DNA from: a virus | IMG/VR virus record: IMGVR_UViG_3300008448_010506 | Span: 1 to 26,838 of that record | Reading direction: 5' to 3' (one strand) | DNA: 26,838 nt | In this document: piece after piece, positions 4,404-26,838 of the stretch | How the letters are laid out: every line of letters begins with the position of its first letter | How positions within the stretch are numbered: the stretch's first letter is position 1 | Notes under the pieces: model-generated | Seen by the model: the letters and a program-made list of their open reading frames with translations, nothing else | Told to the model about the DNA's origin: nothing | Database searches by the model: none | Made by a program: the position numbers and the translations under genes

Positions 4404-4482
4404 AAAAGGGGATGGTAGCGAACCTCCCCTTTAGTTGTTACCATAACGATAACGGTCCTAAAAGTCCTCTGTAAAGAGGATT
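4404..4482 (+). ncRNA. Structured intergenic segment with 23S helix-69-like blocks and terminator
   Basis: Two hairpins are clear. The first pairs AAAGGGGA (4405-4412) with TCCCCTTT (4425-4432), with an inner GGT/ACC. The second pairs TCCTCT (4465-4470) with AGAGGA (4475-4480) around GTAA and is followed by a T-rich run, a good terminator that overlaps the end of the convergent gene. Between them lies TAACGGTCCTAA (4450-4461), and GGTAGCGAA (4414-4422) sits in the first hairpin. In bacterial 23S rRNA these two blocks are adjacent and in the opposite order. The segment could be a stable RNA processed from the operon 3' end or only a terminator region. Confidence 0.4.
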
Positions 4483-4490
4483 ATTTTTCT
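4465..4490 (+). terminator. Terminator of the peptidase-HAD operon
   Basis: TCCTCT-GTAA-AGAGGA stem (4465-4480), extended by one wobble and one A-T pair, followed by TATTTTTCTTTT. It overlaps the stop codon of the minus-strand gene at 4481. Confidence 0.65.
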
Positions 4491-4987
4491 TTTACTAACT
4501 GTAAACATCTTTTTAAATATTCTTTGGCTCTTGACGATGGGTCAGGATGAGAAAGAACTTTTTCAATATCTTTCACTAATTCTTCACCGTGTTCATTTTC
4601 TTTATAAAGCTCAAGTACTTTATCCATGGCACTGTGACAATTACCTGTTGTCTCATCTAAATAATTTTTACCACGAAATGTGTTAAGATGATTCATTAAA
4701 TCGTAAGATAAATGTTCACCAGCATCTGTAACATCAGGGTGTAATCTTATGGTTCTTAAAATATCCAAAGCGTCTACCATACCTCTAATACCACCACTTC
4801 TTTTATACAACTTTGAAGTGTAGTTTTTAAACCCATCATTTAAACCGACAATTTCATCCAAACTAACTGTGTTAGTTGTAAGGCATCTTTGTTTTCCTTC
4901 ATTAGGTTCTTGAGTTGAGTCTGACTCAAGAATATGCTGTCTAATTGCTTTACGAAGTTTATTTTCGTCAATTATGTATTTTTTCAT
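4481..4987 (-). CDS. Hypothetical protein with N-terminal I-x-E signal
   Basis: No family recognised. The 168-residue product is mostly helical and soluble. It begins MKKYIIDENKLRKAIRQHIL with an acidic Ser-rich stretch after it. The I-D-E at 6-8 and I-L-E at 19-21 flank a basic amphipathic helix, the layout shared by many genes in this window and resembling T4 capsid-targeting peptides cut after I/L-x-E. If cleaved at residue 21, the mature protein starts SDSTQEPN. The ATG is preceded on its strand by TATAAATAAC and, further up, ATATTTATC (complement of 5007-5015). The gene is divergent from the small membrane protein at 5104, with a 14-bp inverted repeat between them. An internal head protein is the leading guess. 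Confidence 0.7.
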   Translation of the reverse strand: MKKYIIDENKLRKAIRQHILESDSTQEPNEGKQRCLTTNTVSLDEIVGLNDGFKNYTSKLYKRSGGIRGMVDALDILRTIRLHPDVTDAGEHLSYDLMNHLNTFRGKNYLDETTGNCHSAMDKVLELYKENEHGEELVKDIEKVLSHPDPSSRAKEYLKRCLQLVKEK

Positions 4988-5010
4988 ACTAAATGTTATT
5001 TATATAGATA

Positions 5011-5059
5011 AATATTAATATAAATCAAAATAACTCAACATTTGGTTTATATTAATATT
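5011..5059. repeat. 14-bp perfect inverted repeat in a divergent promoter region
   Basis: AATATTAATATAAA (5011-5024) and its exact complement TTTATATTAATATT (5046-5059) are separated by 21 bases. The repeat sits between divergent genes at 4987 and 5104, so it may be two facing promoter boxes or an operator. Confidence 0.6.
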
Positions 5060-5079
5060 CGTAATTTTTTATTACATAA

Positions 5080-5094
5080 ATGTTAAATTAACAT
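5080..5094. promoter_or_regulatory. 15-bp palindrome ATGTTAAATTAACAT
   Basis: A perfect palindrome around a central A, ending nine bases before the ATG at 5104. Placement suggests an operator for the small membrane protein. Confidence 0.4.
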
Positions 5095-5103
5095 ATATGG
5101 ACG

Positions 5104-5322
5104 ATGATGAATCGAATCAAGACGTGGAGACAAATATTTTTGGGGAATCTTTCAATAAAGTTCCTTATGTTAGCAATGTTCTTCAATCCATTTGGATTCG
5201 ATGCGGTTCAATATTATCTGATTGTTACGACAGGGAGTTTATTTTATGCAAATTTAATTTTGTATTGCGTATCGGGACTATTTTTTGGTCTTTATTTCTT
5301 ATTTCGGAAATACTCTAAATAA
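5104..5322 (+). CDS. Small membrane protein, two helices
   Basis: The 72-residue product starts MMNRIKTWRQIFLGN; translation could also begin at the second Met, 5107. Two hydrophobic segments are visible at about residues 17-38 and 45-66, then the basic tail RKYSK, which predicts an inner-membrane hairpin. A frame from 5097 to 5318 overlaps it, but its translation is a Cys-rich mix without a coherent hydrophobic pattern, so this frame is preferred. It faces another two-helix membrane protein (5326-5535) with only three bases between their stops. Function unknown; small phage proteins of this form include exclusion factors and holin partners. Confidence 0.55.
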   Translation: MMNRIKTWRQIFLGNLSIKFLMLAMFFNPFGFDAVQYYLIVTTGSLFYANLILYCVSGLFFGLYFLFRKYSK

Positions 5323-5325
5323 TAA

Positions 5326-5535
5326 TCATTCATCACTATCCGATTTTTCTTCAGGTGCTGGTATTTGGGTTAAAACCCAAATATCAAAAATCAATAAATA
5401 AATCCACCAAGTTAATGATGAAACATCATATTTCTCAGGATATAAACTTGTTTGTAAAAACAATAGTAATAGTTTTAAAACTATAAAAATTCTAAAAAAT
5501 AAGATTAATGCCGCTAGTAAAGGGGAGTACTTCAT
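5326..5535 (-). CDS. Small membrane protein, two helices with acidic tail
   Basis: A 69-residue product with a hydrophobic N-terminal helix (about residues 4-27), a short loop rich in Tyr and Ser, a second helix (about 41-58) and the acidic end PEEKSDSDE. Its ATG overlaps the TGA of the kinase gene in an ATGA arrangement (5532-5535), so the two are probably translationally coupled and share the promoter at 5929-5936. Function unknown. Confidence 0.65.
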   Translation of the reverse strand: MKYSPLLAALILFFRIFIVLKLLLLFLQTSLYPEKYDVSSLTWWIYLLIFDIWVLTQIPAPEEKSDSDE

Positions 5536-5924
5536 AGGTTAAATTCAAATCGGGTTTTCATTGAGTCAATAATATTATCAGGAACATTGTGTACATTCTT
5601 ACCACCGTGTCTATTTTCCACAATTATTGTAAAAACTTTATACCCAAATTCTTTAGCAATGTTGAAATAATATTCCATCTCCCATTCTTGGGTGAATGTA
5701 TTTGACACGGCAATTTTTGGAATAGATGATTCCATGGCGTATTTTACATTATCTTGACAATCTTTATGAGCGTCTTTGATTTTTGTAAAATCAAATTTGT
5801 ATTCACCATTTTCATCAATAAAATATTGGTCCGCCTCAAATACGTTTGAGGTTAATTGTCTTGCAAAAGTTGATTTACCTGAACCTGGTACTCCCCTAAC
5901 GATATATAAAACTTTTTCATTCAT
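5532..5924 (-). CDS. P-loop kinase, polynucleotide-kinase or NEDD4BP2-like type
   Basis: The 130-residue protein begins with strand YIVRG followed by a Walker A loop GVPGSGKST at residues 11-19. The segment EADQYF (about 30-35) is at the place where this kinase group uses an Asp to activate the acceptor hydroxyl. The C-terminal part contains a basic segment ENRHGG and a conserved-looking NVP. The length and these motifs fit the small ATP-dependent kinases that phosphorylate 5' ends or small molecules. With the HAD_SAK-like gene at 3885 it could form a kinase and phosphatase pair for RNA end repair, by inference. TATATTTG lies four bases before the ATG. Confidence 0.75.
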   Translation of the reverse strand: MNEKVLYIVRGVPGSGKSTFARQLTSNVFEADQYFIDENGEYKFDFTKIKDAHKDCQDNVKYAMESSIPKIAVSNTFTQEWEMEYYFNIAKEFGYKVFTIIVENRHGGKNVHNVPDNIIDSMKTRFEFNL

Positions 5925-5928
5925 AACA

Positions 5929-5965: not shown

Positions 5966-6589
5966 ATGAAAAATTTAGATTTATTAATAGAATCAGTTTT
6001 ACGTGAATATAAAAACCCACCTATGAAATTAAAAAGAGGTGTTGACGTTTCTCCTGAGTTAAAATATCATTTAGAAAATAAAGTTAGTTTAAGTGAAAAC
6101 GTTTTTAGAATATATTCATCAAAATATTTTGATTTGATTAATGAAGCTAGAGAACTTTATAATCAAAATTTGTTATCATTAAACGAAAATGATATATGGT
6201 TAGTTGAATCTGATTTAGGAAAAAAAGTTATCCTTGAAAATGGGGATGAGGTTTATTTGGACGCACCTATTTATGAAAATGACCTTGAGGATGTTTTAAA
6301 TGAAGCGATACACCGTGGTAAAAAAGTTAAATTAGGTAGTCCATTTAGAACACCTGGCGGACCAAAAAAATTCGCAGTTTATGTTAAAACCCCAAAAGGT
6401 ACAGTAAAAAAAGTTACATTTGGGGACCCAAATTTAAGAATTAAAAATGCTAGTAAAGGCAGGGCAAAATCATTTAGAGCGAGACACAAATGTGACCAAA
6501 AGAAAGATAGAACAACTGCTGGATATTGGTCTTGTAATGTGTCAAGATATAGAAAAAAATTAGGTTTAAAATCGTCAAGAAGCTGGTAA
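5966..6589 (+). CDS. Phage protein with SFRARH-C/YWSC C-terminal domain and N-terminal signal
   Basis: The 207-residue product starts MKNLDLLIESVLREY, with L-I-E at 7-9 and L-R-E at 12-14. A spacer with several acidic stretches follows to about residue 110. Then comes LNE at 111-113 and a basic domain of about 94 residues: a beta-rich KFAVYVKTPKG part and the signature SFRARHKC (His174, Cys176) with GYWSC (Cys190). This signature recurs in T4-like and cyanophage proteins, where I recall it as a domain of unknown function (DUF5872-like; name not checked). Cutting after LNE113 would release the basic domain, which could bind DNA or metal. The next gene starts one base after its stop. Confidence 0.75.
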   Translation: MKNLDLLIESVLREYKNPPMKLKRGVDVSPELKYHLENKVSLSENVFRIYSSKYFDLINEARELYNQNLLSLNENDIWLVESDLGKKVILENGDEVYLDAPIYENDLEDVLNEAIHRGKKVKLGSPFRTPGGPKKFAVYVKTPKGTVKKVTFGDPNLRIKNASKGRAKSFRARHKCDQKKDRTTAGYWSCNVSRYRKKLGLKSSRSW

Positions 6590-6590: not shown

Positions 6591-7178
6591 ATGAACAAAC
6601 GTTTAAACGTGTTAAATGAAAATAAAGTCAAAGAATTTTTCAATAAACACAAAGAATCAATAAAAAAAACATTCTTAGAAGAACTTAAAAATTCAAGTGA
6701 TGATGCTAAATCAGCATATTCTAATTTAATTAAATTGGTTAATAGTGGGGAATCAATTAGTGAAGAAGAACGTGAAAAAATTGGTAATGAACTTAAGAGT
6801 GTATTTAAAAGAACTTTAACTAAATTAGGTATGGCGGGTATATTTTTGTTACCTGGTGGTACTATATTTTTAATATTAATGAAACTATTTAAAAAGAAAA
6901 AATCAAAAGTTAATGATTTACCATTTGACGAAATAAATGAGGGTAATAAAAAAATTCGTGTGTTTAGTGAAAATACCGAATCTGATGAATTAAAATGGCA
7001 CAGAGATAGAGAGGATAGATTAGTCACAGTCCTTGAAGGTCAAGGATGGGAAATACAAATGGATAACGAATTACCAAAAAGTCTTACAAAAGGCCAAAAA
7101 TATATAATACCTGAAGGTGTATATCACAGAATAATTAAAGGACAAGGTAATTTAAAAGTATCCATAGAATTTATTTAG
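6591..7178 (+). CDS. Membrane-helix plus cupin protein with N-terminal signal
   Basis: The 195-residue product has three parts. Residues 1-30 carry the signal-like start NVLNENKVKEFF (LNE at 8-10). Residues 31-105 are helical and contain one hydrophobic segment with a central LPGG (about 78-99) followed by a Lys-rich stop. Residues 118-195 form a cupin-like barrel (WHRDREDR, LEGQGWEIQMDNELP, IIPEGVYHRIIKG) of a type common in T4-like phages. INE at 115-117 lies exactly before the cupin, so head-protease cleavage would separate the membrane part from the barrel. The start is one base after the previous stop, indicating an operon. Its 3' end overlaps the convergent gene by eight bases. Confidence 0.75.
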   Translation: MNKRLNVLNENKVKEFFNKHKESIKKTFLEELKNSSDDAKSAYSNLIKLVNSGESISEEEREKIGNELKSVFKRTLTKLGMAGIFLLPGGTIFLILMKLFKKKKSKVNDLPFDEINEGNKKIRVFSENTESDELKWHRDREDRLVTVLEGQGWEIQMDNELPKSLTKGQKYIIPEGVYHRIIKGQGNLKVSIEFI

Positions 7179-10061: not shown

Positions 10062-10687
10062 TTTTGTAATTTACTAATTAGTTTCTTAAAAAATTCACTT
10101 AAAACTTTACCTGATAAAGTAATTAATTTTGACATCCCGATTGACGAAACAAATAACATAGTATCGTCATACGTAACTTGACCTGTTTGTACTAAGTTTA
10201 TAATTGGACCTAGTGATGGTATCATAAAGGCGTAAGATAACATTGTCACCATACTACCAACATTAATATCAATTGATTTTAAAAATGAAATAAAAGTTTT
10301 CTTTAAATTTTTAGATTTATTAAGTGCGATTTTAAATACATCAAACAAACCTTTTTCTTTAATTTTATCAATAATATCACCAATAAAAGTTCTATTATTC
10401 ATAAAAATAGTTCCTACAATACCTAATAAAATTAATGTCGTATCTCTATCACTTAATTCAGGATACTCGCCTGATAAAAAATCATTAACTGGTTTCATAA
10501 AACCACCAATACCCGCTCCCCAAGTAATTAAAAATCCAAGATTGTTTGAAAACTCATCTTTAGAAAATTCTGTAATTCGTTTAAAAAGATTATAGTTTTG
10601 TTTCACATCATCTTCTATTTCGTTATTAAGAGACTCAACAATAAGTTTTCTTTTTTGTTCTTCAGTAATTAAAATTGTGGTTTTCAT
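10058..10687 (-). CDS. Multi-helix membrane protein with N-terminal I-x-E signal
   Basis: The 209-residue product starts MKTTILITEEQKRKLIVES, with I-T-E at 7-9 and I-V-E at 16-18, so it belongs to the signal-bearing set. At least three hydrophobic segments follow, around residues 50-66 (Gly-rich), 83-97 and 143-168, separated by basic helices, and the C terminus is basic. After cleavage this could be a membrane-active internal virion protein delivered with the DNA. Function unknown. The ATG directly follows the box ATATTTATATTAAT on its own strand, four bases away. Confidence 0.7.
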   Translation of the reverse strand: MKTTILITEEQKRKLIVESLNNEIEDDVKQNYNLFKRITEFSKDEFSNNLGFLITWGAGIGGFMKPVNDFLSGEYPELSDRDTTLILLGIVGTIFMNNRTFIGDIIDKIKEKGLFDVFKIALNKSKNLKKTFISFLKSIDINVGSMVTMLSYAFMIPSLGPIINLVQTGQVTYDDTMLFVSSIGMSKLITLSGKVLSEFFKKLISKLQN

Positions 10688-11825: not shown

Positions 11826-12308
11826 ATGAACGCTTATTTTTTCAATATTACAAACGAGGAAAGAAATAACATATTAGACAAGCATAAAGAAATTTATGAC
11901 GGATATGTGACTCAATATTCAAAACCAAATGAACAACCATTATATACTCAAGATTTTGCAAACGATAAAAACGGTATTACTGTAAATAATAAAGGTGAAG
12001 TTGGGGAGTATAGAAATATGAATATCAATGAAATGAAATACGATGGTAAAGATATTGGTTTGTTTTCTGATGAAGCAACTGAGGACGTTTATTCAGGTGC
12101 CAAATTTGAACCTGAAGAAACATTTGAGGAAATAGATGAAATGCAATTAGACACAATTGGTGATGGTCCTTTGGATTTGGAAAATGGTACAGTGGATTTT
12201 GACGACGAAAACGATATTTTTGATGAACTTGAGGACGATATGGTTGAACCATTACAAGAACAATTAAATAGAACTATTGACATGTTCAATAGATTTAAGA
12301 AATATTGA
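11826..12308 (+). CDS. Acidic phage protein with ITxEER-ILDKHKxxYDGY start
   Basis: The chosen ATG (11826) gives MNAYFFNITNEERNNILDKH and then KEIYDGY, QPLYTQDFANDKNGITV and a C-terminal half dominated by Asp and Glu. The opening pattern recurs in uncharacterised proteins of Bacteroidota phages and is a variant of the window-wide signal. A longer frame from 11775 adds a hydrophobic stretch encoded across the promoter-like box and is rejected. The very acidic C terminus resembles scaffolding or internal head proteins. The next gene begins one base after its stop. Confidence 0.7.
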   Translation: MNAYFFNITNEERNNILDKHKEIYDGYVTQYSKPNEQPLYTQDFANDKNGITVNNKGEVGEYRNMNINEMKYDGKDIGLFSDEATEDVYSGAKFEPEETFEEIDEMQLDTIGDGPLDLENGTVDFDDENDIFDELEDDMVEPLQEQLNRTIDMFNRFKKY

Positions 12309-12309: not shown

Positions 12310-12627
12310 ATGGAAATTAAGGAATTAGTGTCGTTTTACATTAATGAATCATCGCAAACATTAGACGTAACTTTTAGAACTTTATTAGATACTGACGATG
12401 AAATTAGAACTGACCAAATAAATTTTAGTGAAATTAAAAATTTTGGTTATGATGTTTTACTTAATAGGATTGATGAATTTGAAGACTTGTTAGATGAGGA
12501 CGAATTTGAATATGATGATTTTGACGAACTTTTTGAAGATGATGAATTAGAAGATGACGTAATTTCGTTTTTAAATGAATATTACTTAATAAATTCAGGT
12601 AACTTGCCTAAGGCCGAATTTTTTTAA
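12310..12627 (+). CDS. Acidic hypothetical protein (105 aa)
   Basis: The ATG at 12310, one base after the previous stop, gives MEIKELVSFYINESSQTLDV. I-N-E near residue 12 matches the shared signal. A beta-rich segment follows (VTFRTLLDTDDEIRTDQI), then a run of Asp/Glu-rich sequence in the second half and a hydrophobic end. A longer frame from 12277 overlaps the upstream gene and is not needed. Function unknown. It may work with the equally acidic neighbour, as the two are probably co-transcribed. Confidence 0.65.
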   Translation: MEIKELVSFYINESSQTLDVTFRTLLDTDDEIRTDQINFSEIKNFGYDVLLNRIDEFEDLLDEDEFEYDDFDELFEDDELEDDVISFLNEYYLINSGNLPKAEFF

Positions 12628-12631: not shown

Positions 12632-13801
12632 ATGAAAAATAGAATTAACATTAATGAAAGGGGATTAAAAACCTCAATTAGAAAGGTTTTAAATGAACAA
12701 CTTTTAAACAAATCGGTGGAATCAAAATTGTTCCCTAATGTCATTGATAAAATGAAAAGAATGAATGATGGGGTTTATAAAGATTTTGATAAGTCTTACG
12801 ATTACAAATTAGAGAATATGAAGTGGTTCTTTAAAAGAAAAACAGATAAATCAAACAATTGGGTTAGTTTAGAGAAATACCCCGTAGCATTAAAAAAATT
12901 ATACGGACAATTATCATCAACTTTAAATAAGAAATATCAAAAAGCGAATAACCAAAAATTCATTATGGGGTTCCAATTATGGATGAATAAAAATAAACCC
13001 AATTGGTTTAAAGGTGGTAAGTTACCTAACAATTATCTAGGGACATATGGTCCTGAAACAAAAAATGCGATGAAAACTTACAAACAATCTTATGTGAGTG
13101 CTCTAAAACAAGAAACTAAAAAAAGTGGGACACTTTGGGATGATGTGAAAAACTTAGCATCTGTTGCGGGTGTTGCGTTAGATGCGTTTTTAACTTTTAC
13201 GTCCCCAGCATACTCTGGTGTTAAAACAGCGGGAAATGCTGCGGTCAGAGGAGTTAAAAAGTTTTTAAGAAAACAATTTCCAAATGTTATTCAGTTATTT
13301 TATTCAAGGGATTTAGACGAGTCCGACTTTAAACCTGACCAATTGGCGGTCATTAAAACTGCGGTTAATAATGCGGTTAAAAGAACTGGTAAAACTAAAT
13401 TAGGCGCTACCGAATATGTTGATTATGGTAAAGAAAATGCCGATAAATGGTTCGGACCTGGTGGTGTAAAATCTGTAGATATGGTTTTGAATACTTTAAA
13501 TAGTAATCCTATATTTATGATAGCAACAACTTTAGGTAGATTTACTTATAAAATTGAAAATGGTAAACTAAAAGTAACCGACATTTATGACTTTAGTCCT
13601 ATTCCTGATGCTAAAACAAATTTAAAGGAACTTGAAAACTTAACATATCCGCAAAAAATATTAAAAATAAAAAATGAAAACCCGAAGGCTGGGTGGTACG
13701 CTTGTATTAGACATTTGGCTTACTTAGAACATCCTGACACCAATGTTAATAATAAACCAAAAGTAAATATTACTATAGATTATCCTCAAAATGTTGCGTA
13801 A
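12632..13801 (+). CDS. Putative internal virion protein with signal and hydrophobic core
   Basis: The 389-residue product begins MKNRININERGLKTSIRKVL and then NEQ, with I-N-E at 7-9 and L-N-E at 20-22 flanking a basic helix, the clearest double signal here besides the one at 26572. The segment GTYGPETKNAMKTY (about 130-144) resembles the end of a peptidoglycan-binding repeat. A hydrophobic stretch at about 172-195 is followed by NAAVRGVKKFLRKQF. The C-terminal half contains a beta-rich LGRFTYKIENGKLKVTDIYDF. I do not recognise the whole protein. Its parts fit an internal protein that meets the host envelope during infection. It starts four bases after the preceding stop. Confidence 0.65.
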   Translation: MKNRININERGLKTSIRKVLNEQLLNKSVESKLFPNVIDKMKRMNDGVYKDFDKSYDYKLENMKWFFKRKTDKSNNWVSLEKYPVALKKLYGQLSSTLNKKYQKANNQKFIMGFQLWMNKNKPNWFKGGKLPNNYLGTYGPETKNAMKTYKQSYVSALKQETKKSGTLWDDVKNLASVAGVALDAFLTFTSPAYSGVKTAGNAAVRGVKKFLRKQFPNVIQLFYSRDLDESDFKPDQLAVIKTAVNNAVKRTGKTKLGATEYVDYGKENADKWFGPGGVKSVDMVLNTLNSNPIFMIATTLGRFTYKIENGKLKVTDIYDFSPIPDAKTNLKELENLTYPQKILKIKNENPKAGWYACIRHLAYLEHPDTNVNNKPKVNITIDYPQNVA

Positions 13802-14246: not shown

Positions 14247-14498
14247 ATGAGAAGTGAAATTGACAATATAATCTCAGTTATGAATATGGTTATTAATAAA
14301 TCATATGACACAGAATTAAGTGAACAAGATACCACTACGGCGGGCGGAGGAGATACTGGTGGAGATACAAAACCAGATTATCCGACAGTGACAAAATGGG
14401 AATCAGGTGTTGCTAGAGGACCTGCCAATCAAATAGCGATAGTTAAATGGGCGGACATTGTAAAAGTTAACAGAGGTAAAGCTAATACTTTATTGTAA
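14247..14498 (+). CDS. Small conserved phage protein with WESGVxRGPANQI motif
   Basis: The 83-residue product has a helical start, L-S-E at 24-26, a Gly/Thr/Asp linker (about 29-41) and the C-terminal motif TKWESGVARGPANQIAIVKW followed by GKANTLL. I recall this C-terminal motif from other Bacteroidota phage proteins but know no function. Cleavage after LSE26 would leave the Gly-rich linker and the motif. Its place before three large internal-type proteins suggests a virion component. Confidence 0.65.
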   Translation: MRSEIDNIISVMNMVINKSYDTELSEQDTTTAGGGDTGGDTKPDYPTVTKWESGVARGPANQIAIVKWADIVKVNRGKANTLL

Positions 14499-14544: not shown

Positions 14545-15750
14545 ATGAAGAAACTGTTGATTACAGAATCGGAAAAAGACAATATATTAGGTTTATACAA
14601 TATAACCGCAACTAATAACATTAGTGAGGAAATTGTTATTACCGATTGGTTATCTCCCGATGAAAAATACATCATATTTTTGGATGAGTTATATGACATT
14701 GAAAACAAAACCAAACTTGGGAATATATGGGAAGACTTTAATAATTTAAAAACTTTCTTATCACACTCATTTGCTGTGTCAACTTTACCCAAACAAATAA
14801 AGGAAGAGGCAGAATTAATCCTAAGTAGTAAACTTATAACCGAAAGTACAAAAAACATTTCACATTTAAAATCAGATTTCAAGGTCCTGTTAAATGAAGG
14901 ATTATGGAGTAGTTTTAAAAATTGGGCTTACGAAACAGGTAAATCCACTATTGACGGATTTAAAGAATTCGCTAAAAAAAGTGTTAAAGGTATTGGTGAT
15001 ATTGTTGATAAAATATCTAAGGGTGAATGGAAAGAAGTTTTTTCATTATTAGGGAAAGGAGTTTTATGGTTGGCGAGAAAACTAAGAAGTGCATTGTATC
15101 ATCCTGTCGGGTTGATTCTTGACGCTATTTTAGTTGCGACAGGAATTGGTAAAGCGGTTCAGTGGATTCCTTGGGCAATAATAGTTGCTTTAGATGTGTA
15201 TGAAATGGTTACAGGTAATTATGAGGAAAACTTACCTACTTGGCAAAGATTATTATTCTTAGGAGTTGATATCTTAGGTTTAGTTTTTGCGGGGGCAGTA
15301 GCTAAATCAGGAAGAGTGGCCCTTGAAGGTGCTGTTAGAGGGGTTAAAACCGCTGAAGAGTTGGGAGTGGTTGCGGCTAAAAACTCAACCGTAAAAAACT
15401 TGTTAACTAAAATTGGTGGTGCCGTTGAAAAAGTCCCTGGTCTTTTAGAAAGAGCCGTTAATTGGTTAAAAACTAAATTCCCTATGGGTGCTAAATTTAT
15501 TGGTGGTATCTTAAGTAAAATTGGTAAATTTTTAAAAGGGATATCTAATTTTATTTCTAAGGCGTTACATACAATTGCACCTGGAACTGGTAAATTGGCA
15601 AGAGGGTCAAGAGCTGCGATTGGAACAACCGCTTTAGTTGGTGGTATTGGAACTTATAGTGGGTATAAACAAGAAAAAGGTGAGATGGAATTGGCATCCG
15701 CACTAACAGACTCAGATGTGAAGTCGGTATATAATATAAATAAAATATAA
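14545..15750 (+). CDS. Large internal-type protein with signal and hydrophobic core
   Basis: The 401-residue product starts MKKLLITESEKDNILGLYNI, with I-T-E at 6-8. Residues 20-118 look like a propeptide rich in acidic residues. LLNE at 115-118 is followed by GLWSSFKNWAYETG, the start of a long amphipathic and hydrophobic region. Hydrophobic segments lie at about 184-222 and 234-253, then Gly/Lys-rich repeats to the end. The next two genes share this plan. If the head protease cuts after E118, the released part would be a membrane-active protein, perhaps ejected to form a channel. No enzyme motif is visible. The ATG is preceded by CTATTTATAAG (14522-14531). Confidence 0.65.
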   Translation: MKKLLITESEKDNILGLYNITATNNISEEIVITDWLSPDEKYIIFLDELYDIENKTKLGNIWEDFNNLKTFLSHSFAVSTLPKQIKEEAELILSSKLITESTKNISHLKSDFKVLLNEGLWSSFKNWAYETGKSTIDGFKEFAKKSVKGIGDIVDKISKGEWKEVFSLLGKGVLWLARKLRSALYHPVGLILDAILVATGIGKAVQWIPWAIIVALDVYEMVTGNYEENLPTWQRLLFLGVDILGLVFAGAVAKSGRVALEGAVRGVKTAEELGVVAAKNSTVKNLLTKIGGAVEKVPGLLERAVNWLKTKFPMGAKFIGGILSKIGKFLKGISNFISKALHTIAPGTGKLARGSRAAIGTTALVGGIGTYSGYKQEKGEMELASALTDSDVKSVYNINKI

Positions 15751-15755: not shown

Positions 15756-17150
15756 ATGAGTGAAGATTTATTAAAAAGACAATTATTGTTAATGAAATAC
15801 GATATGAGTACAACATTAACTGAAAATTTAGAAAGTGTTGAATCCGTAATTTCAGAACAAGGTGTTATAAAAGATATTGTTAGAGGTGGTGGAGTTGCGG
15901 CTCGTGAACTTGAGGGTGTACTTAAAACTATGATGAAAGATAGTAAAGTTGCTAATGAACTTAAAAATGTGACTTTAACTGATGCTAAAGGAATGAGGAC
16001 GGGAGTTAGAACCGCTGAAGAACTTGCAAGTGCGATTAAATTAGGTAAACTAAATAGTTTTCTAAAAGGTGAACTTGAGTTAGCTATATTAAAATCAAGA
16101 ACAACTAATAAATCATTAATTGATGCTGCAGCTAGTAACTTAGCAAGAAACAAAAGTTTTATAAACAAATATTCATCATCATTAGCTAAAGGTCAAGTTG
16201 AGTACGAAAAAGCGTTAAAGGCCGCTGGATATAGCGAAGAGGCGATAACTTCAATTGTTAAACAAACTGAAAACATTGGAGGTAAAATAAAAACAGGTGA
16301 AGATATCCTTAAAACATCAGGTAAAGACGTTCAAGCAGGTAAAAATATAAAATCTGAAAAAGATTTATTTAGTTTAAATACTCAAAAAGGTAAATGGGAA
16401 GGTTTTAAAAAATTGGCCCGAATGAAAGGGTTGAAAGTACTTGAATACGCTAAAAGACTTGGTTGGAAAAAGGTAATTATGTATGGTGCAGCAGGATGGT
16501 TGGCGATATATCTTTGGAGAAACTGGTTTTCCGCAAAACCTAAGATATGGAGTCAATGTTTAATTGATTTTGTTGGATACAACAATTTTTCAAAGGCGGT
16601 TCAGATTAAACCAGGTATTTTATCTGTTAAAGGTAAAACAGGTTTACAATCGTTAGACATGAACGGATATACTTATTTTAGAAATGATGGAACCGCAAAA
16701 AATGGTCAATTTGAAGGTACTTGGGAATGTGATGGTGAAAAATTAGTATTAGAATTTGATGGTCAAGAATATTATCCTGTTAAAGGTTCAGTAACACCTG
16801 TAGTCACAGATGGTGGAGGTGGAGGTTCTAACACAGATGGTGGTGGAGGAACAACCCAACCAACATACAGAGCTTGTAGTGGAACATATAATAAAGGATG
16901 TAAATCTGAAGTAATTAGAAAAGTACAAGGTTGTTTAGGTGTTAAAATGGACGGTTTATTTGGACCTAAAACAGAAGCGGCTGTTCAGTCTAAACTTGGT
17001 AAATTGATTTTTAGTGATTCTGATGTTGATGGAATTTGTGGTATTGCACAAAATGTAACAACCACAACTACAACTGTTAAACCTATTTCAGAACCAACAA
17101 CAATAGAACCTGAATCAGTTAATGTTAAAGATTTTTTAGCAGGGATTTAA
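15756..17150 (+). CDS. Virion protein with membrane segment and peptidoglycan-binding domain
   Basis: The 464-residue product has L-T-E and I-S-E sites (residues 21-23 and 32-34) before GVIKDIVRGG, a helical region to about 240, and a hydrophobic segment IMYGAAGWLAIYLW (241-254). A beta-rich domain (about 262-345: GYTYFRNDGTAKNG, GTWECDGEKLVLEFDG) follows, then a Gly-rich linker (353-367). A PG_binding_1-like domain at about 371-415 carries QGCLGVKMDGLFGPKTEAAV and four Cys. This layout, membrane segment then wall-binding domain, fits a protein working at the cell envelope during DNA entry or lysis. No lytic active site is visible. It begins five bases after the previous stop, and two TATAAATA sequences precede the ATG. 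Confidence 0.75.
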   Translation: MSEDLLKRQLLLMKYDMSTTLTENLESVESVISEQGVIKDIVRGGGVAARELEGVLKTMMKDSKVANELKNVTLTDAKGMRTGVRTAEELASAIKLGKLNSFLKGELELAILKSRTTNKSLIDAAASNLARNKSFINKYSSSLAKGQVEYEKALKAAGYSEEAITSIVKQTENIGGKIKTGEDILKTSGKDVQAGKNIKSEKDLFSLNTQKGKWEGFKKLARMKGLKVLEYAKRLGWKKVIMYGAAGWLAIYLWRNWFSAKPKIWSQCLIDFVGYNNFSKAVQIKPGILSVKGKTGLQSLDMNGYTYFRNDGTAKNGQFEGTWECDGEKLVLEFDGQEYYPVKGSVTPVVTDGGGGGSNTDGGGGTTQPTYRACSGTYNKGCKSEVIRKVQGCLGVKMDGLFGPKTEAAVQSKLGKLIFSDSDVDGICGIAQNVTTTTTTVKPISEPTTIEPESVNVKDFLAGI

Positions 17151-17176: not shown

Positions 17177-18700
17177 ATGTTATTAAAAGAAGACCAAAAT
17201 ACAGGATTAACAAATTTAAAAGAAATCAAAGCGAAAAAATGTGTAACCGATGATTTTAAGTTTGTAACTAACCCTATTAATAATAAAGTTGCTTTATACA
17301 AGAAAACTGAAAAAGGGAATTGGATTTTTGTTTATGAAGATTTAACTATTGAGGCAATTAATCCATCTACTAAAGAAACATTGAAGACGGGTAAAATATC
17401 TTGCGAAGGGTTTAAGTCGGTAGAACAAAAAAAATCTGACGAAGAAAAACTTAAATCTGACGAAGAAAAACTTAAAATAACTGCAGACAATAAAGTTGTA
17501 GAGGACGTTTTAAATAAAGCTGGATATACTTTAGTTGCTCCTGAGATTACTGACGGTAGATATGACAAAAGAATGGACATTAGACTACTGATGGGTGGTA
17601 AGTATAAAGATTATTATAAAGATTTAGGTGGGACAGGTGGTCCTATTTACGCATATCCAATGGAAGATGAAACACCTGAAAACTATTCATTAAAGGATAG
17701 AATCACACGTAGACCGACAGATGATTCCGAAATTACAGGTAAGATTGATAGTAAATCAGCTAAAAAACTTCTTAAAAGAGTAAAGAGTGGTGAGACATCT
17801 AAAAAAGATTGTAGAAGTATGATTAAAACTTTAGATTATCTAAGAAAAACTAACGCACAAGTTGATGATGCCGAATTAATGTCATTAAAACGTGGAGTTT
17901 TTGCTTGTTATGAACAAGGTGAAAAATTTATTGAGGGTACGTTAGGTGTTGGTGATGAAATGAAAAATATAATAGGTGATACAAGTAAGTATGGTATTAA
18001 TGAATTTTTAACTAATAAAATGAATATGAAAGAATCAACAAGCATTAAAAGTGTAATTAAAGAAAATTTAATTAAAAAATCAATTGAGAAAAAAAATATT
18101 CTTATTAGTGAAACTACGGTAATTAAAAATAGATACGAAGTATTAACTGAAGGTAAAAGTATTAAAACTGAAAAAGAAATTAGAGAATTTGTTAATGAAC
18201 TAATTAAAGAAACTGCCGAGTTAAATTCATTAGGGTATAGACCTGAATTAATCCAAGAAGGGTTATTTGACATGGTTAAAGGTTTATTCGGTAACGCATC
18301 TGAAAGCATCTTCAGTTACTTCAAAGAGCAATTTGCAACTTGGATTGTTGAGAAATTTACACCAATAGAATCTGATAGTTGGTTAGGGTCAATAATTATA
18401 ACGGCAATAGGTAACGTTCCGATAAGTGAATTACCAAAATTAACTAATTGTAGTTTTGTTAGTAATATCATATCAAAATCAATTGTTGAGGGTACCACTA
18501 AGAAAATACAAGCTGAAAGAGGATTTGAGGGTGCGGGTTATGATATTTTACGTAACGCATTAATTGAGATGGCTGAAGACAGTTCATTTGGTCAAAAAGT
18601 TGAACAAAAAGTTAGTGAATTTATTTGTCCTTTATTGGGTGGTATTGGTCAGAAATTAGGTTCTGCAGCATCAACTATCAAACAAAAAGTGATGGCATAA
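17177..18700 (+). CDS. Large internal-type protein with many I/L-x-E sites
   Basis: The 507-residue product starts MLLKEDQNTGLTNLKEIKAK. Residues 85-99 hold two copies of KSDEEKL. The middle part contains GTGGPIYAYPMEDETPENYS (151-170) and a helical Lys-rich region. From about 293 it has several I/L-x-E sites (IKE, ISE, LTE), one group in a sequence like the window-wide N-terminal signal (NILISETTVIKNRYEVLTEG). LIQE at 358-361 is followed by GLFDMVKGLFG and a hydrophobic C-terminal region. This repeats the plan of the gene at 14545, where LLNE precedes GLW. A head-protease substrate with a membrane-active C-terminal product is the working model. A strong terminator follows. Confidence 0.65.
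   Translation: MLLKEDQNTGLTNLKEIKAKKCVTDDFKFVTNPINNKVALYKKTEKGNWIFVYEDLTIEAINPSTKETLKTGKISCEGFKSVEQKKSDEEKLKSDEEKLKITADNKVVEDVLNKAGYTLVAPEITDGRYDKRMDIRLLMGGKYKDYYKDLGGTGGPIYAYPMEDETPENYSLKDRITRRPTDDSEITGKIDSKSAKKLLKRVKSGETSKKDCRSMIKTLDYLRKTNAQVDDAELMSLKRGVFACYEQGEKFIEGTLGVGDEMKNIIGDTSKYGINEFLTNKMNMKESTSIKSVIKENLIKKSIEKKNILISETTVIKNRYEVLTEGKSIKTEKEIREFVNELIKETAELNSLGYRPELIQEGLFDMVKGLFGNASESIFSYFKEQFATWIVEKFTPIESDSWLGSIIITAIGNVPISELPKLTNCSFVSNIISKSIVEGTTKKIQAERGFEGAGYDILRNALIEMAEDSSFGQKVEQKVSEFICPLLGGIGQKLGSAASTIKQKVMA
17432..17473 (+). repeat. Tandem 21-bp duplication inside the gene at 17177
   Basis: The 21-bp unit beginning AAATCTGACGAAG occurs at 17432-17452 and 17453-17473 without change, encoding KSDEEKL twice. 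It is a recent in-frame duplication in a charged linker. Confidence 0.85.
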
Positions 18701-23593: not shown

Positions 23594-23599
23594 CACTTT

Positions 23600-23671: not shown

Positions 23672-23675
23672 CTAC

Positions 23676-23764: not shown

Positions 23765-23770
23765 CTGAGA

Positions 23771-23841: not shown

Positions 23842-23847
23842 CAATAT

Positions 23848-23922: not shown

Positions 23923-23983
23923 CAAAAAATTAATGGTATTGAATAATTTATTTTATTTACGTACTTTGTTAAAAATGTATTGT

Positions 23984-24592
23984 ATGAATCTATCAGAATT
24001 AAAATTAAACTATTCATTAGGAGATAATTCTAAAATATTAGAACTTGATGACAAAACCAAAGAAACGTTATTATTAGGGTTACTTAATGAGATGTCTAAT
24101 GATAAAAATTCCTCATTATTTAGAGAAGGGGTGACATTGGGGATTTTAGGGGTAAAACAAAGTGTTCACAAATTAGGGTACGATTCTGACGAATACCCAA
24201 TTGAAGTTAAACCAAAGAATTTATCATCAGATTCAACTAAAAAGTTTGACGGTTCAGGTAATTTCAGTGACTTTACATGGAAAAGACACAAAAAATATAA
24301 AGATGATAAAGTTAAAATGGTAGTGTCGGGGTTTTTAGATGGTAAATTATTGTTTTTAGTAAGTTTCCAATATAACTCAGTTGATTTTGTAAATGAAATA
24401 GAACGGCAATTAACTAAACACTTACCAAACGGTGATGAATTAAATAGATATGTTAGAAGTGTTAAATTTAGTTACTTACACTTTAAAAATTCAGATTCGT
24501 TTAGACTTGAATATATTTCACCTATGATTAGTGAATATGAACATAAATTTACAAAACCGTTTTTTAAATCGTTGATTGAATATGGAAATTAA
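23984..24592 (+). CDS. Putative type II restriction endonuclease (PD-(D/E)XK-like)
   Basis: The 202-residue product (ATG 23984; 23975 and 23933 are in-frame alternatives) has an approximately 60-residue helical start. EYPIEVKPKN follows, whose Glu74-Val-Lys76 fits the ExK half of a nuclease active site; Asp67, Asp69 or Glu70 could be the first acid. A Gly/Phe-rich segment (GSGNFSDFTWKRHKKY) and a strand pair VKMVVSGFLDGKLLFLVSF come after. It overlaps the DNA methyltransferase gene by 11 bases, the classic arrangement of a restriction-modification pair. I cannot name the recognition site. A nickase or homing nuclease is a weaker alternative. Confidence 0.6.
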   Translation: MNLSELKLNYSLGDNSKILELDDKTKETLLLGLLNEMSNDKNSSLFREGVTLGILGVKQSVHKLGYDSDEYPIEVKPKNLSSDSTKKFDGSGNFSDFTWKRHKKYKDDKVKMVVSGFLDGKLLFLVSFQYNSVDFVNEIERQLTKHLPNGDELNRYVRSVKFSYLHFKNSDSFRLEYISPMISEYEHKFTKPFFKSLIEYGN

Positions 24593-25400
24593 AAACAATA
24601 TAGTACTTGGTGATGTGTATGATGTTTTAAAAACACTTGATGAAAACATTTTTGATATGGGTGTAACATCCCCACCTTATAATAAACAAAACAATAGAAA
24701 AGGTGTCTTGGTTAAGGATATTAAATATTCGGATATTACGGATAATAAAAATGAATCTGAATACCAAATAGAGCAAATTGAAATACTAAACGAATTGTTT
24801 CGTGTTATTAAACCTGGAGGTTCGTTCTTTTATAACCATAAAATTAGATGGGATAAAGGAGAAATGTTTCATCCGATGGATTGGTTAAAAAAAACTGATT
24901 GGACAGTTAAACAAGAAATAATTTGGGATAGACAAATTGCCGCAAATATTAGAGGTTGGAGATTTTGGCAAGTGGAGGAAAGAATTTATTGGTTGTACAA
25001 ACCAATAAATAAAAAAGATAATGGTGAGGAATTAAAATCTAAACATGCATTAATGACATCAGTTTGGAGATTACGACCTGAAATGAATAAATCTACGGTA
25101 TCTAATCATCCCGCACCATTTCCAATTGAAATACCGACAAGATGTATTTACTCAATATTGGATGATAAAGAAGGTTGTGACATTATTGACCCATATATGG
25201 GTAGTGGAACTTCAGCGGTTGCATCTAAACTATTAGGGCATAACTATTTTGGGATTGATATATCTGAGGAATATATTATCAACGCCAATAACAGAATTAA
25301 TAATATAACTGATAAAGAAATATCTGACTTTAACGATGAGGTTGCTAAACATAAAGTAAATAAAACATATAAAGACAGAAAAAAAGAAAAAGAAAATTAG
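24582..25400 (+). CDS. DNA amino-methyltransferase, beta class
   Basis: The product has catalytic motif IV TSPPYN at residues 29-34 near the N terminus and the SAM-binding motif DPYMGSGTSAVAS at 203-215 near the C terminus, with HPAPFP (176-181) between. This order defines the beta class of N6-adenine or N4-cytosine methyltransferases; TSPPY alone does not separate the two. The 272-residue length is usual. The ATG at 24582 is preferred over a TTG at 24576. The upstream overlapping gene is a probable restriction enzyme, so this is the modification half, protecting phage DNA and perhaps marking or attacking competing DNA. Site specificity is unknown; GATC is a candidate worth testing because that site is absent here. 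Confidence 0.88.
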   Translation: MEIKNNIVLGDVYDVLKTLDENIFDMGVTSPPYNKQNNRKGVLVKDIKYSDITDNKNESEYQIEQIEILNELFRVIKPGGSFFYNHKIRWDKGEMFHPMDWLKKTDWTVKQEIIWDRQIAANIRGWRFWQVEERIYWLYKPINKKDNGEELKSKHALMTSVWRLRPEMNKSTVSNHPAPFPIEIPTRCIYSILDDKEGCDIIDPYMGSGTSAVASKLLGHNYFGIDISEEYIINANNRINNITDKEISDFNDEVAKHKVNKTYKDRKKEKEN

Positions 25401-25407
25401 TATAATG

Positions 25408-25439
25408 TTGCGGTATATACCAAAAAACGGTTATATTTG
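25408..25439 (+). promoter_or_regulatory. Bacteroidota-type promoter with palindromic spacer, second tRNA cluster
   Basis: TTG (25408-25410), 21-base spacer, TATATTTG (25432-25439), 18 bases before tRNA-Ile. The spacer holds the perfect palindrome GGTATATACC (25412-25421), a possible operator. Confidence 0.7.
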
Positions 25440-25456
25440 TTCCAAGAAACTAAAAC

Positions 25457-25529
25457 TGTGATGTGCCCGAGCGGTGTAGGGGCTATCCTGATACGATAGT
25501 TTACGGGGGTTCGAATCCCTCCATCACAA
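25457..25529 (+). tRNA. tRNA-Ile (GAT)
   Basis: Acceptor TGTGATG/CATCACA, anticodon loop CTGATAC in CTATC/GATAG, T-arm GGGGG-TTCGAAT-CCCTC, discriminator A. Confidence 0.9.
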
Positions 25530-25535
25530 CAAAAT

Positions 25536-25610
25536 GTCTTCGTAGCTCAGCAGGATTAGAGCACTCCACTTTTAATGGAGGGGTCAAGAGTTCGAATCTC
25601 TTCGGGGATA
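25536..25610 (+). tRNA. tRNA-Lys (TTT)
   Basis: Acceptor GTCTTCG/CGGGGAT with a G1-U72 wobble and two internal G-U pairs, D-arm GCTC...GAGC, anticodon loop CTTTTAA in CTCCA/TGGAG, T-loop TTCGAAT, discriminator A. Confidence 0.88.
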
Positions 25611-25617
25611 CAAAAAT

Positions 25618-25689
25618 AGCTCCTTAGCTTAAAGGAAAAGCGCTTGTTTTACATACAAGATAGTGTAGGTTCGAGTCCTACAGGGGCTA
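25618..25689 (+). tRNA. tRNA-Val (TAC)
   Basis: Acceptor AGCTCCT/AGGGGCT, D-arm GCTT...AAGC, anticodon loop TTTACAT in CTTGT/ACAAG, T-arm GTAGG-TTCGAGT-CCTAC, discriminator A. Confidence 0.9.
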
Positions 25690-25695
25690 CAATAC

Positions 25696-25846
25696 GACTC
25701 CATAACTGTTAGGGTCGCAACCGAAGCGGTGAGTGGGTTAACGATGATAATTTGTAGTTGGCACCCGTAGTACTAGTATATGGGTCACTTAGGTCAAAGC
25801 ATCTTATATGTAGTTAACAAGGTGGGTTCGATTCCCATTGGGGTCA
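25696..25846 (+). ncRNA. Oversized tRNA-like RNA (151 nt)
   Basis: The ends are those of a tRNA: acceptor GACTCCA (25696-25702) pairs with TGGGGTC (25839-25845), preceded by a perfect T-arm GTGGG-TTCGATT-CCCAT and followed by A. Between them lie about 119 bases instead of about 45. They contain hairpins ACCG-AAG-CGGT (25720-25730) and ACCCGTA/TATGGGT (25763-25785), and a GTTAAC repeat (25737-25742 and 25813-25818) that can pair with itself just before the T-arm, where an anticodon stem would be. No anticodon can be assigned. It may be a tRNA with a long insertion, a decayed tRNA, or a tRNA-like RNA with another job. Confidence 0.6.
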
Positions 25847-25850
25847 CAAT

Positions 25851-25916
25851 AGAGGTATAGGGTTTACCCCTTGAGACGAAGTACAAGTCATGGTCACTGA
25901 ATGTAAACCAACCTCT
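25851..25916 (+). ncRNA. 66-nt two-stem RNA between tRNA genes
   Basis: AGAGGT (25851-25856) pairs with ACCTCT (25911-25916), and GGTTTAC (25861-25867) with GTAAACC (25903-25909), enclosing a 35-base loop that can form a CTTG/CAAG hairpin. It has tRNA-like outer dimensions but no T-loop. It starts five bases after the tRNA-like RNA, so it is probably cut from the same transcript. Confidence 0.5.
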
Positions 25917-25930
25917 AAACAAATTAACAA

Positions 25931-26004
25931 GGACAGATGCCTGAGTGGTTTAAAGGGGTGGACTGCAAATCCATTATTCGGGGGTTCAAATCCCTCTCTG
26001 TCCT
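25931..26004 (+). tRNA. tRNA-Cys (GCA)
   Basis: Acceptor GGACAGA/TCTGTCC, anticodon loop CTGCAAA in GTGGA/TCCAT, T-arm GGGGG-TTCAAAT-CCCTC, discriminator T as expected for Cys. Confidence 0.9.
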
Positions 26005-26005
26005 C

Positions 26006-26026
26006 AATGAAATAATTAATTTCATT
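26006..26026. repeat. 8-bp inverted repeat between tRNA-Cys and tRNA-Trp
   Basis: AATGAAAT (26006-26013) and ATTTCATT (26019-26026) around AATTA form an AT-rich hairpin in the tRNA spacer, perhaps a processing signal. Confidence 0.45.
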
Positions 26027-26030
26027 ATTT

Positions 26031-26102
26031 GCGTCTTTGGTGTAACGGCAAGCATAAGTGACTCCAAATCTCTTGGTCAGGGTTCGAGTCCTTGGAGACG
26101 CG
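26031..26102 (+). tRNA. tRNA-Trp (CCA)
   Basis: Acceptor GCGTCTT/GAGACGC, anticodon loop CTCCAAA in AGTGA/TCTCT (one T-T mismatch), T-arm CAGGG-TTCGAGT-CCTTG, discriminator G as in other tRNA-Trp. Confidence 0.88.
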
Positions 26103-26108
26103 CAAAAT

Positions 26109-26181
26109 GACTCAGTAGCTCAATTGGGAGAGCATCACACTGTTAATGTGAACGTTACAGGTTCGAGTCCTGTCTGAGTCG
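26109..26181 (+). tRNA. tRNA-Asn (GTT)
   Basis: Acceptor GACTCAG/CTGAGTC, D-arm GCTC...GAGC, anticodon loop CTGTTAA in TCACA/TGTGA, T-arm ACAGG-TTCGAGT-CCTGT, discriminator G. Confidence 0.93.
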
Positions 26182-26190
26182 CAATAGGTT

Positions 26191-26315
26191 GATTGGGGAA
26201 GGGTGATACTAATGACACGAGAGTGTATATCGGTCAGTATCATCGGAGTTGGGAGATATACACCAAAGTAATGCCAATCGTAAAATCAGATGTCCACACA
26301 ACCATCTTCTGATTT
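26191..26315 (+). ncRNA. Structured RNA with a predicted pseudoknot
   Basis: Four exact pairings are visible. GATTGG (26191-26196) pairs with CCAATC (26274-26279) as an outer stem. GGTGATACT (26202-26210) pairs with AGTATCATC (26236-26244) over nine bases. The loop of that stem contains GTGTATATC (26223-26231), which pairs over nine bases with GATATACAC (26255-26263) downstream, giving an H-type pseudoknot. A competing small hairpin ACAC-GAGA-GTGT shares part of this. A further hairpin AAATCAG/CTGATTT (26283-26289, 26309-26315) follows. There is no tRNA T-loop and no coding frame. Function unknown. Confidence 0.6.
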
Positions 26316-26324
26316 CCTAAACTT

Positions 26325-26407
26325 GGGATGTTATACCGTAGGGGCAGCGGGAACGACTGTAAATCGTTTGTCTTCGGACTCGGGTGGTTCGACTCCATCA
26401 CATCCCA
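26325..26407 (+). tRNA. tRNA-Tyr (GTA)
   Basis: Acceptor GGGATGT/ACATCCC, D-arm CCG...CGG, anticodon loop CTGTAAA in AACGA/TCGTT, long variable arm, T-arm GGTGG-TTCGACT-CCATC, discriminator A. Confidence 0.9.
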
Positions 26408-26418
26408 CACATAAAACC

Positions 26419-26537
26419 TTCAGGTAGGTGGATTGTGTTACACACCCCATTGACGAATGGGACGGTCCTAACAATAAATTGCCCAGACGTACAAGCAACG
26501 AATATGGACTAAGTGGGTTAGATTCCCACACCTGGAC
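26419..26537 (+). ncRNA. Second oversized tRNA-like RNA (119 nt)
   Basis: Acceptor TTCAGGT (26419-26425) pairs with ACCTGGA (26530-26536, one G-T), next to a T-arm GTGGG-TTAGATT-CCCAC whose loop lacks the usual C56. Inside are GGTG/CACC (26427-26430, 26443-26446), the hairpin CCCATT-GACG-AATGGG (26446-26461; its first C is shared with the preceding stem) and ACGGTCCTAA (26462-26471), a 10-mer also present at 4452-4461. No anticodon arm is recognisable. A T-rich run follows and may end the cluster. Confidence 0.5.
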
Positions 26538-26559
26538 ATTATTTTTTATACCAATTGCA

Positions 26560-26570
26560 ATATTTATTAA
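26560..26570 (+). promoter_or_regulatory. ATATTTATTAA box (candidate late promoter)
   Basis: ATATTTATTAA ends one base before the ATG at 26572, matching the boxes at 9032, 10708 and the minus-strand copy at 10692. Confidence 0.4.
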
Positions 26571-26571
26571 T

Positions 26572-26838
26572 ATGAAAAAAGTAATTAGGCTAACAGAATC
26601 GGATTTAACAAGATTTGTTAAACGAGTAATCAATGAAAGTAAGAAAGACCCATCAAATAAAAAAATTGAATCTGAGTTAAACAAACTTATGGACGATTAC
26701 GTTGGTGAAGATGAATGGATTGGTGGTCACCGTGAATCCTCAGATAAACCATACGATAGATTTATGGTCAAATTTAAACAATCAGGTGAGGATACTGAAG
26801 AAATTGCCGAAGAAGTTATTGAAAAATTAAATGATGTC
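26572..26838 (+). CDS. Protein with N-terminal I/L-x-E signal, cut by the window end
   Basis: Only the first 89 codons are present. The product starts MKKVIRLTESDLTRFVKRVI followed by NES, with L-T-E at 7-9 and I-N-E at 20-22 around a basic amphipathic helix. It is the most typical form of the signal shared by many genes here. The rest is charged and soluble (KIESELNKLMDDYVGEDEW, then an acidic helix). No family recognised. Starts of this form are frequent in phages of marine Bacteroidota as far as I recall. The gene resumes the probable virion set after the tRNA region. Confidence 0.75.
   Translation, partial: MKKVIRLTESDLTRFVKRVINESKKDPSNKKIESELNKLMDDYVGEDEWIGGHRESSDKPYDRFMVKFKQSGEDTEEIAEEVIEKLNDV

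What the first reader, a model, noticed from the sequence alone, without database searches (positions are those of the whole stretch)
4481..26838. A shared N-terminal signal resembling capsid-targeting peptides
At least ten unrelated proteins begin with Met, basic residues, I/L-x-E at about residues 7-9, a short amphipathic helix and often a second I/L-x-E at about 19-22: genes at 4987(-), 5966, 6591, 10687(-), 12310, 12632, 14545 and 26572, with looser forms at 11826, 14247, 15756 and 17177. T4 internal head proteins carry an N-terminal targeting peptide cut by the gp21 protease after I/L-x-E. The pattern suggests a large set of proteins co-packaged into the prohead and delivered to the host.
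Basis: partly seen in the sequence, partly recalled or inferred. Interest (0 to 1): 0.82.

Follow-up and report, generated by a model that had tools for sequence, protein, structure and literature searches.

The report
Capsid-loading tags on giant-phage proteins
A giant phage, probably of Bacteroidota, and its relatives put a short, apparently cleavable address tag on the front of dozens of unrelated proteins, which most likely loads them into the virus head for delivery to the next host; phage T4 is known to do this with only a handful of proteins.

Summary
I/L-x-E at residues 6-12 occurs in 324/1630 proteins of seven related contigs, against about 9% expected and no clear excess in two S77-less phages. 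A 22-residue form, MKK(I/V)I(R/K)LTE-SDLxRIVKRVIxE, keeps E22 in 110/123 copies although E22 was not in the search pattern, and conservation stops there. P3 (I/L) and P1 (E) are conserved between orthologs while P2 and P1' are not. All 11 module-bearing contigs of at least 149 kb encode a gp21-like S77 protease. Their capsid protein carries LI(N/Y)E-A exactly at T4 gp23's processing site FLTE-A. The same protein bodies carry interchangeable tag types, or none. The pattern is nearly absent from 84,980 cellular genomes. The protease is not on the window's own fragment. Cleavage, packaging and injection remain untested. It is a new, greatly expanded variant of the T4 capsid-targeting system.

The parts
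4925..4987 (-). Tag on gene 4481-4987: MKKYIIDE|NKLRKAIRQHILE| (residues 1-21, two I/L-x-E sites)
   Evidence: E21 invariant in 8 homologs; AlphaFold2: helix 8-21, disorder 22-32, then globular domain
5966..6007 (+). Short tag on gene 5966-6589: MKNLDLLIESVLRE| (residues 1-14)
   Evidence: E14 with [IL]xE in 11/11 homologs
10634..10687 (-). Tag on gene 10058-10687: MKTTILITE|EQKRKLIVE| (sites at residues 9 and 18)
   Evidence: 10/10 and 9/10 homologs
12632..12697 (+). 22-residue tag on gene 12632-13801: MKNRININE|RGLKTSIRKVLNE|
   Evidence: matches the module form; no diverged ortholog found
14247..14324 (+). Tag on gene 14247-14498: helix, then ELSE| at residue 26, followed by a Gly/Ala-rich linker
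   Evidence: 8/9 homologs
14545..14568 (+). Short tag on gene 14545-15750: MKKLLITE|
   Evidence: 6/9 homologs; the L131 homolog carries an N terminus (LLEEIEKSK..GYNPKNTLSEN) resembling that of 15756
15756..15857 (+). Two-site tag on gene 15756-17150: ...TLTE|N...VISE| (residues 23 and 34)
   Evidence: first site 9/9 homologs; a second I/L-x-E with variable spacing in most
26572..26637 (+). Canonical 22-residue tag MKKVIRLTE|SDLTRFVKRVINE| on a gene cut by the window end (complete, 110 aa, in the 61-kb contig of the same virus, G021:59748-60080)
17177..17191 (+). Weak candidate tag MLLKE| on gene 17177-18700; the gene also has a run of I/L-x-E sites inside (residues 296-361), where two proteins that are separate genes in relatives are joined
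6591..7178 (+).
12310..12627 (+).
11826..12308 (+). Listed as a looser form, not supported at the stated place; conserved INE at residue 69 could end a longer propeptide

Best explanation
The N-terminal segments are capsid-targeting propeptides of the T4 type, in a different sequence dialect. While the prohead core assembles, a short, mostly basic, amphipathic N-terminal helix binds the core (scaffold), so the tagged protein is enclosed when the gp23-type shell closes. The gp21-like S77 protease inside the prohead then cuts after I/L-x-E, at one site or at two successive ones, releasing the tag and freeing the mature protein. The protein stays in the head with the DNA and, as in T4, is probably ejected into the next host. 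The tag is a detachable cassette moved between unrelated genes, so in these phages it marks dozens of cargo proteins. Shown by sequence: the shared tag, its boundary, the protease-like conservation pattern, swapping, and co-occurrence with the S77 head cassette and an I/L-x-E capsid site. Inferred: binding to the core, actual cleavage, presence in virions. Further inferred: injection and the roles of the cargo.
For: Positional enrichment in seven related contigs and in T4 as positive control (34/219 against 8%, recovering gp21, gp22, gp24, gp68, Alt and the two MKTYQEFIAEA internal proteins), with none significant in two S77-less phages. Model of the tag: 43 N-terminal hits of at least 10 bits against 0 in shuffled N termini. 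E22 in 110/123 with conservation ending there. P3 0.75 and P1 0.65 against P2 0.40 and P1' 0.45 at N-terminal sites; body sites P1 0.47. S77 in 11/11 module contigs of at least 149 kb; at 100 kb or more 15/19 against 6/19 in neutrally chosen contigs (Fisher p=0.004), and the strict tag in none of those controls. T4-like portal, S77, scaffold and gp23 cassette. Capsid protein LI(N/Y)E-A aligned to T4 FLTE-A. Scaffold enriched in I/L-x-E: 0.023-0.028 per residue against a G002 median of 0.013. One protein body (RYMFFSNLEQ...) with the long tag in some members, the short tag in others and none in one. Synonymous positions vary. Near-absence from cellular genomes. T4 facts: PMC9026906.
Against: No virion proteomics or cleavage data exist for these uncultured phages. 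The protease is not on the window's own contig or its two longer near-identical contigs (61 and 43 kb, both fragments). Four module contigs of 107-149 kb also lack it, perhaps because incomplete. The tag sequence does not resemble T4's MKTYQEFIAE beyond basic-helix-I/L-x-E. The scaffold's site density is well below T4 gp22's 0.0595. The contigs compared are related, so counts are not independent. Some tagged proteins may be core or structural proteins rather than injected cargo.
Confidence: 0.82

Rival explanations
1. The tag is a docking peptide for another hub (tail, membrane, replication compartment) and is not cut; I/L-x-E is simply the end of an amphipathic helix.
For: The tag is helical and charged, and no cleavage data exist. 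Weak matches to tape-measure and endolysin families among carriers would fit a tail or envelope role for some.
Against: P3 and P1 alone stand out. Conservation ends at E even when helix length changes by a turn (E22 or E26) or the upstream part varies from 16 to 43 residues (the APIDY family). The same site type lies at the capsid protein's processing point. The tag tracks the S77 protease.
Confidence: 0.1
2. The tagged proteins are prohead core and assembly proteins, cut and mostly discarded like T4 gp22, gp67 and gp68, with little delivered to the host.
For: One tagged gene lies just upstream of the protease gene (G002 166712-167158), and the scaffold itself is rich in I/L-x-E.
Against: Carriers are numerous, variable between genomes and mostly unlike one another; a few resemble enzymes or effectors (TseH-like, GH19, peptidoglycan-binding, M78), which fits cargo better than scaffold.
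Confidence: 0.25
3. The similarity is at the DNA or RNA level, for example a translation leader around the start codon.
For: It sits exactly at start codons.
Against: Third codon positions vary freely at invariant or nearly invariant residues (T8 1.75 bits, L12 1.34 bits) while second positions are fixed. The short tag types share no DNA motif with the long one.
Confidence: 0.02
4. Chance or compositional bias of AT-rich, Lys/Glu/Ile-rich proteins.
For: Background density of I/L-x-E is fairly high in these genomes (0.011-0.016 per site), and three of the twelve reported genes are indeed chance.
Against: Enrichment is confined to about residues 5-25, absent for I/L-x-D, not significant in S77-less genomes, and the tag model gives zero hits after shuffling.
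Confidence: 0.01

Closest known systems
T4 capsid-targeting sequences of internal proteins IPI-IPIII and Alt, cut by gp21 (PMC9026906)
   Same: N-terminal, short, on unrelated proteins; I/L-x-E site; S77 protease, gp20 portal, scaffold and gp23 cassette; the same site at the capsid-protein processing point
   Different: Different sequence (MKKxIRLTESDLxRIVKRVIxE, MKIIITE, MNLxxIIKKVLKE and TLTEN types instead of MKTYQEFIAE); often two sites and up to 22-34 residues; dozens of carriers per genome instead of a handful
SPN3US and phiKZ propeptides of ejection proteins (PMC5694885)
   Same: Giant phages with many head proteins processed by a prohead protease; identical N termini on diverged proteins (gp53, gp54)
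   Different: Their motif is A/S-x-E, propeptides are mostly over 100 residues, and only eight processed proteins were reported in SPN3US
P1 DarB capsid-targeting signal (PMC9024508)
   Same: N-terminal residues direct an anti-restriction protein into the head
   Different: Single carrier studied; no separate scaffold system in P1
bS21-encoding Bacteroidetes phages (PMC9723584)
   Same: Probably the same viral group: up to 331 kb, with an antisense bS21-like gene inside the head cassette
   Different: That abstract and outline do not mention targeting peptides (body text not read)

Membership tests
T4-type capsid-targeting sequence | Short N-terminal extension shared by unrelated proteins | tested here: met
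T4-type capsid-targeting sequence | Ends in an L/I-x-E cleavage motif | tested here: met
   (as sequence; cutting itself not shown)
T4-type capsid-targeting sequence | gp21-type S77 prohead protease in the same virus | tested here: met
   16/22 module contigs, 11/11 of at least 149 kb; for the window's own virus inconclusive, contigs incomplete
T4-type capsid-targeting sequence | gp23-type capsid protein with an I/L-x-E propeptide site | tested here: met
   not on the window's contig
T4-type capsid-targeting sequence | Sequence similarity to MKTYQEFIAE | tested here: not met
   the strict tag pattern is absent from T4; only the basic-helix-I/L-x-E plan is shared. The T4 sequence itself is not what defines the class (Alt differs too)
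T4-type capsid-targeting sequence | Sufficient to bring a foreign protein into the head | not testable with these tools
   needs a reporter fusion in an infected host
T4-type capsid-targeting sequence | Mature protein in the virion starting after the site | not testable with these tools
   needs virion mass spectrometry; none found in the literature searched
phiKZ/SPN3US-type propeptides | A/S-x-E motif on long propeptides | tested here: not met
   [AV]xE not enriched at N termini (SxE was not counted); tags are 7-34 residues

The most novel reading that the evidence does not exclude
A widespread group of giant T4-related phages packages and injects a variable set of several dozen different proteins (perhaps a tenth to a quarter of its genes), each labelled by an interchangeable, protease-removed N-terminal tag, so the injected proteome of an uncultured phage can be read from sequence. 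Candidate cargo includes a TseH-like hydrolase, peptidoglycan-active proteins and, below threshold, an Acb1-like anti-CBASS protein.
Probability: 0.5. Interest if true: 0.85.

Novelty: new variant of a known kind. Interest (0 to 1): 0.72.

Why it matters
Most genes of giant phages have no assigned function; here a simple tag predicts which are loaded into the virion and where their mature N termini lie. It shows the T4 capsid-targeting principle at a scale not described in the papers I could search, names candidate early-acting host-takeover or anti-defence proteins, and suggests a ready-made address for loading proteins into heads of phages that probably infect Bacteroidota. It also gives a test for whether cargo loading follows the S77 protease across tailed phages: T4 and an S77-positive contig without the strict tag show the same N-terminal excess, and two S77-less phages do not.

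Tried and rejected
Rejected as members: 6591, 12310 and 11826. Searching S77 in the window itself: nothing, because the record is a 26.8-kb fragment. Short-peptide tblastn of the tag against INPHARED: no match, too short for that search. Literature search for the motif string: none. AlphaFold2 of 14545: poor, mean pLDDT 49.5, not used. PDB fold search with 4481: no match at E<=0.001. The tag in cellular genomes: 4 stretches only, of which L407 is a phage-like contig, L405 lies in the same MAG (that MAG also holds an S77 gene), L406 is a match outside any ORF of 70 aa or more and probably chance, and L408 was not examined. An Acb1 label for one carrier is below Pfam's cut-off and is kept only as a lead.
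Full report
WHAT IT IS. The window is a complete IMG/VR record of 26,838 bases and a fragment of a larger virus. Two longer near-identical contigs exist: G021 (61 kb) and G022 (43 kb). Relatives are contigs of up to 412 kb. Those contigs encode a T4-like head cassette (large terminase, portal, S77 protease, scaffold, gp23; S77 and gp23 by profile, the others by position and appearance) with a small antisense gene that looks like bS21. This matches the published bS21 phages predicted to infect Bacteroidetes (PMC9723584); placing the window's virus in that group is inference.

CHECKING THE OBSERVATION. The N termini are as stated. Residues 13 onward were free in that search, yet they read xRIVKRVIxE: residue 22 is E in 110 of 123 copies, and beyond residue 23 no position is conserved. 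Twelve variants with SDLHxIVxxSVxxIxxE carry four extra residues, one helical turn, with the final E at 26 in most. A profile of the 22 residues finds 43 N-terminal hits of at least 10 bits among about 1,200 proteins of six contigs, and none when N termini are shuffled.

STATISTICS ACROSS GENOMES. Using one ORF caller throughout, the fraction of proteins with [IL]xE ending at residues 6-12 is 0.20, 0.12, 0.30, 0.34, 0.25, 0.17 and 0.17 in G002, G005, G021, G020, G012, G007 and G003, against 0.08-0.10 expected from each genome's own body density (p from 2e-2 to 3e-15). Peaks lie at 7, 9, 13 and 22. [IL]xD shows no such peak. T4 shows the excess (0.16 against 0.08), as does G039, an S77-positive contig without the strict tag (0.13 against 0.06). 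The S77-less G030 and G034 show no significant excess (0.08 against 0.06, p=0.05; 0.07 against 0.07). In T4 the excess includes gp21, gp22, gp24, gp68, Alt and the two MKTYQEFIAEA internal proteins, which is the positive control (gene names assigned from known T4 sequences). Pooled, 324/1630 against 64/827 gives p=2e-16, but the contigs are related, so this p-value is only indicative.

PROTEASE-LIKE CONSERVATION. Over 807 reciprocal-best pairs below 65% identity, N-terminal sites keep P3 (I/L, 0.75) and P1 (E, 0.65), while P2 (0.40) and P1' (0.45) are ordinary. Body sites show P1 at 0.47. P1' after N-terminal sites is enriched in Ser and Gln. This is what a protease with I/L-x-E specificity leaves, and T4 gp21 has exactly that specificity (PMC9026906). 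Third codon positions vary at fixed residues, so selection acts on protein.

LINK TO THE PROTEASE AND CAPSID. S77 (PF03420) is found in 16 of 22 module contigs and in all 11 of at least 149 kb. Contigs chosen through a neutral tRNA pattern had it in 6 of 19 of at least 100 kb and the tag in none. The capsid proteins of the relatives read LINE-A or LIYE-A where T4 gp23 reads FLTE-A, its 65-residue processing point. The scaffold is richer in [IL]xE than most proteins, though less so than T4 gp22.

DETACHABILITY. The RYMFFSNLEQ family carries the long tag in some members, the short type (MNLNxIIKKVLKE) in others, and none in L296, a contig from the neutral set. The APIDY family keeps (I/L)xE-API in most members while everything upstream varies in length. 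A 2H-phosphoesterase-like protein with a weak Acb1 match has a tag in G012 and none in the window's virus. In the window, the homolog of 14545 in L131 carries an N terminus resembling the two-site type of 15756. AlphaFold2 of 4481 gives a lone helix at residues 8-21, disorder at 22-32, then the globular domain (mean pLDDT 82), as expected for a propeptide ending at E21.

WINDOW GENES. Supported: 4481, 5966, 10058, 12632, 14247, 14545, 15756 and 26572. Weak: 17177. Rejected: 6591, 12310 and 11826 at the stated place. The 61-kb contig adds many more, concentrated in its first 20 kb, where 16 of 35 proteins have [IL]xE at residues 6-12.

CARGO. Of 130 carriers chosen by pattern (so their shared ITE is partly by selection), only seven Pfam families appear: GH19, TseH-like (above cut-off), peptidoglycan-binding, M78, DHH, Acb1-like and a glycosyltransferase. 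Most carriers have no known domain, so host takeover or envelope roles are plausible, not shown.

HOW IT WORKS. The tag helix is inferred to bind the core, the shell closes, S77 cuts after I/L-x-E at one or two sites, and the cargo stays with the DNA and is probably ejected. In T4, residues 4 and 7 of the tag direct targeting and residues 8 and 10 direct processing. Excess over expectation at residues 6-17 suggests roughly 40-60 tagged proteins on the 296-kb contig G002; this is an estimate.

NOVELTY. The principle is that of T4. The sequence dialect, the two-site form and the number of carriers were not found in the papers searched, which exclude most subscription journals. Verdict: new variant of a known kind, pending proteomics.

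Noticed in passing
window 10734-11519, residues 83-116: A roughly 35-residue motif (K-SIDCxNPKGFSQKAHCQGRKK) recurs at 61-82% identity inside otherwise unrelated proteins L072 and L111 and, more weakly (36% over 88 residues), L188: a second detachable module, function unknown.
   Followed up: no
window 17177-18700: A fusion of two proteins that are separate genes in relatives, with several I/L-x-E sites around the junction (residues 296-361); if S77 cuts there it would behave as a polyprotein.
   Followed up: partly
L296 and module contigs: The RYMFFSNLEQ(M)KRQCE family (about 150 aa) occurs with long, short or no tag and has no name in the searches made.
   Followed up: partly
G012:98606-98791, G020:3425-3619: Small antisense gene in the head cassette that looks like ribosomal protein bS21, as in the published Bacteroidetes phages; identified by eye only.
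   Followed up: partly
window 11826-12308, residue 69: A conserved INE in 8 of 11 homologs that could end a 69-residue propeptide, similar in length to that of gp23.
   Followed up: no
window 23100-26408: Fourteen tRNA genes, with a DNA-methylase-like gene at 24576 among them.
   Followed up: no
G012:25542-26084 and G021:19627-20169: 2H-phosphoesterase-like protein with a sub-threshold match to anti-CBASS Acb1; tagged in one phage, untagged in the other.
   Followed up: partly
L405, L407: Short contigs binned to an 'Alphaproteobacteria' MAG (UBA3650); L407 is phage-like and carries three tagged genes, and the same MAG also holds an S77 gene.
   Followed up: partly
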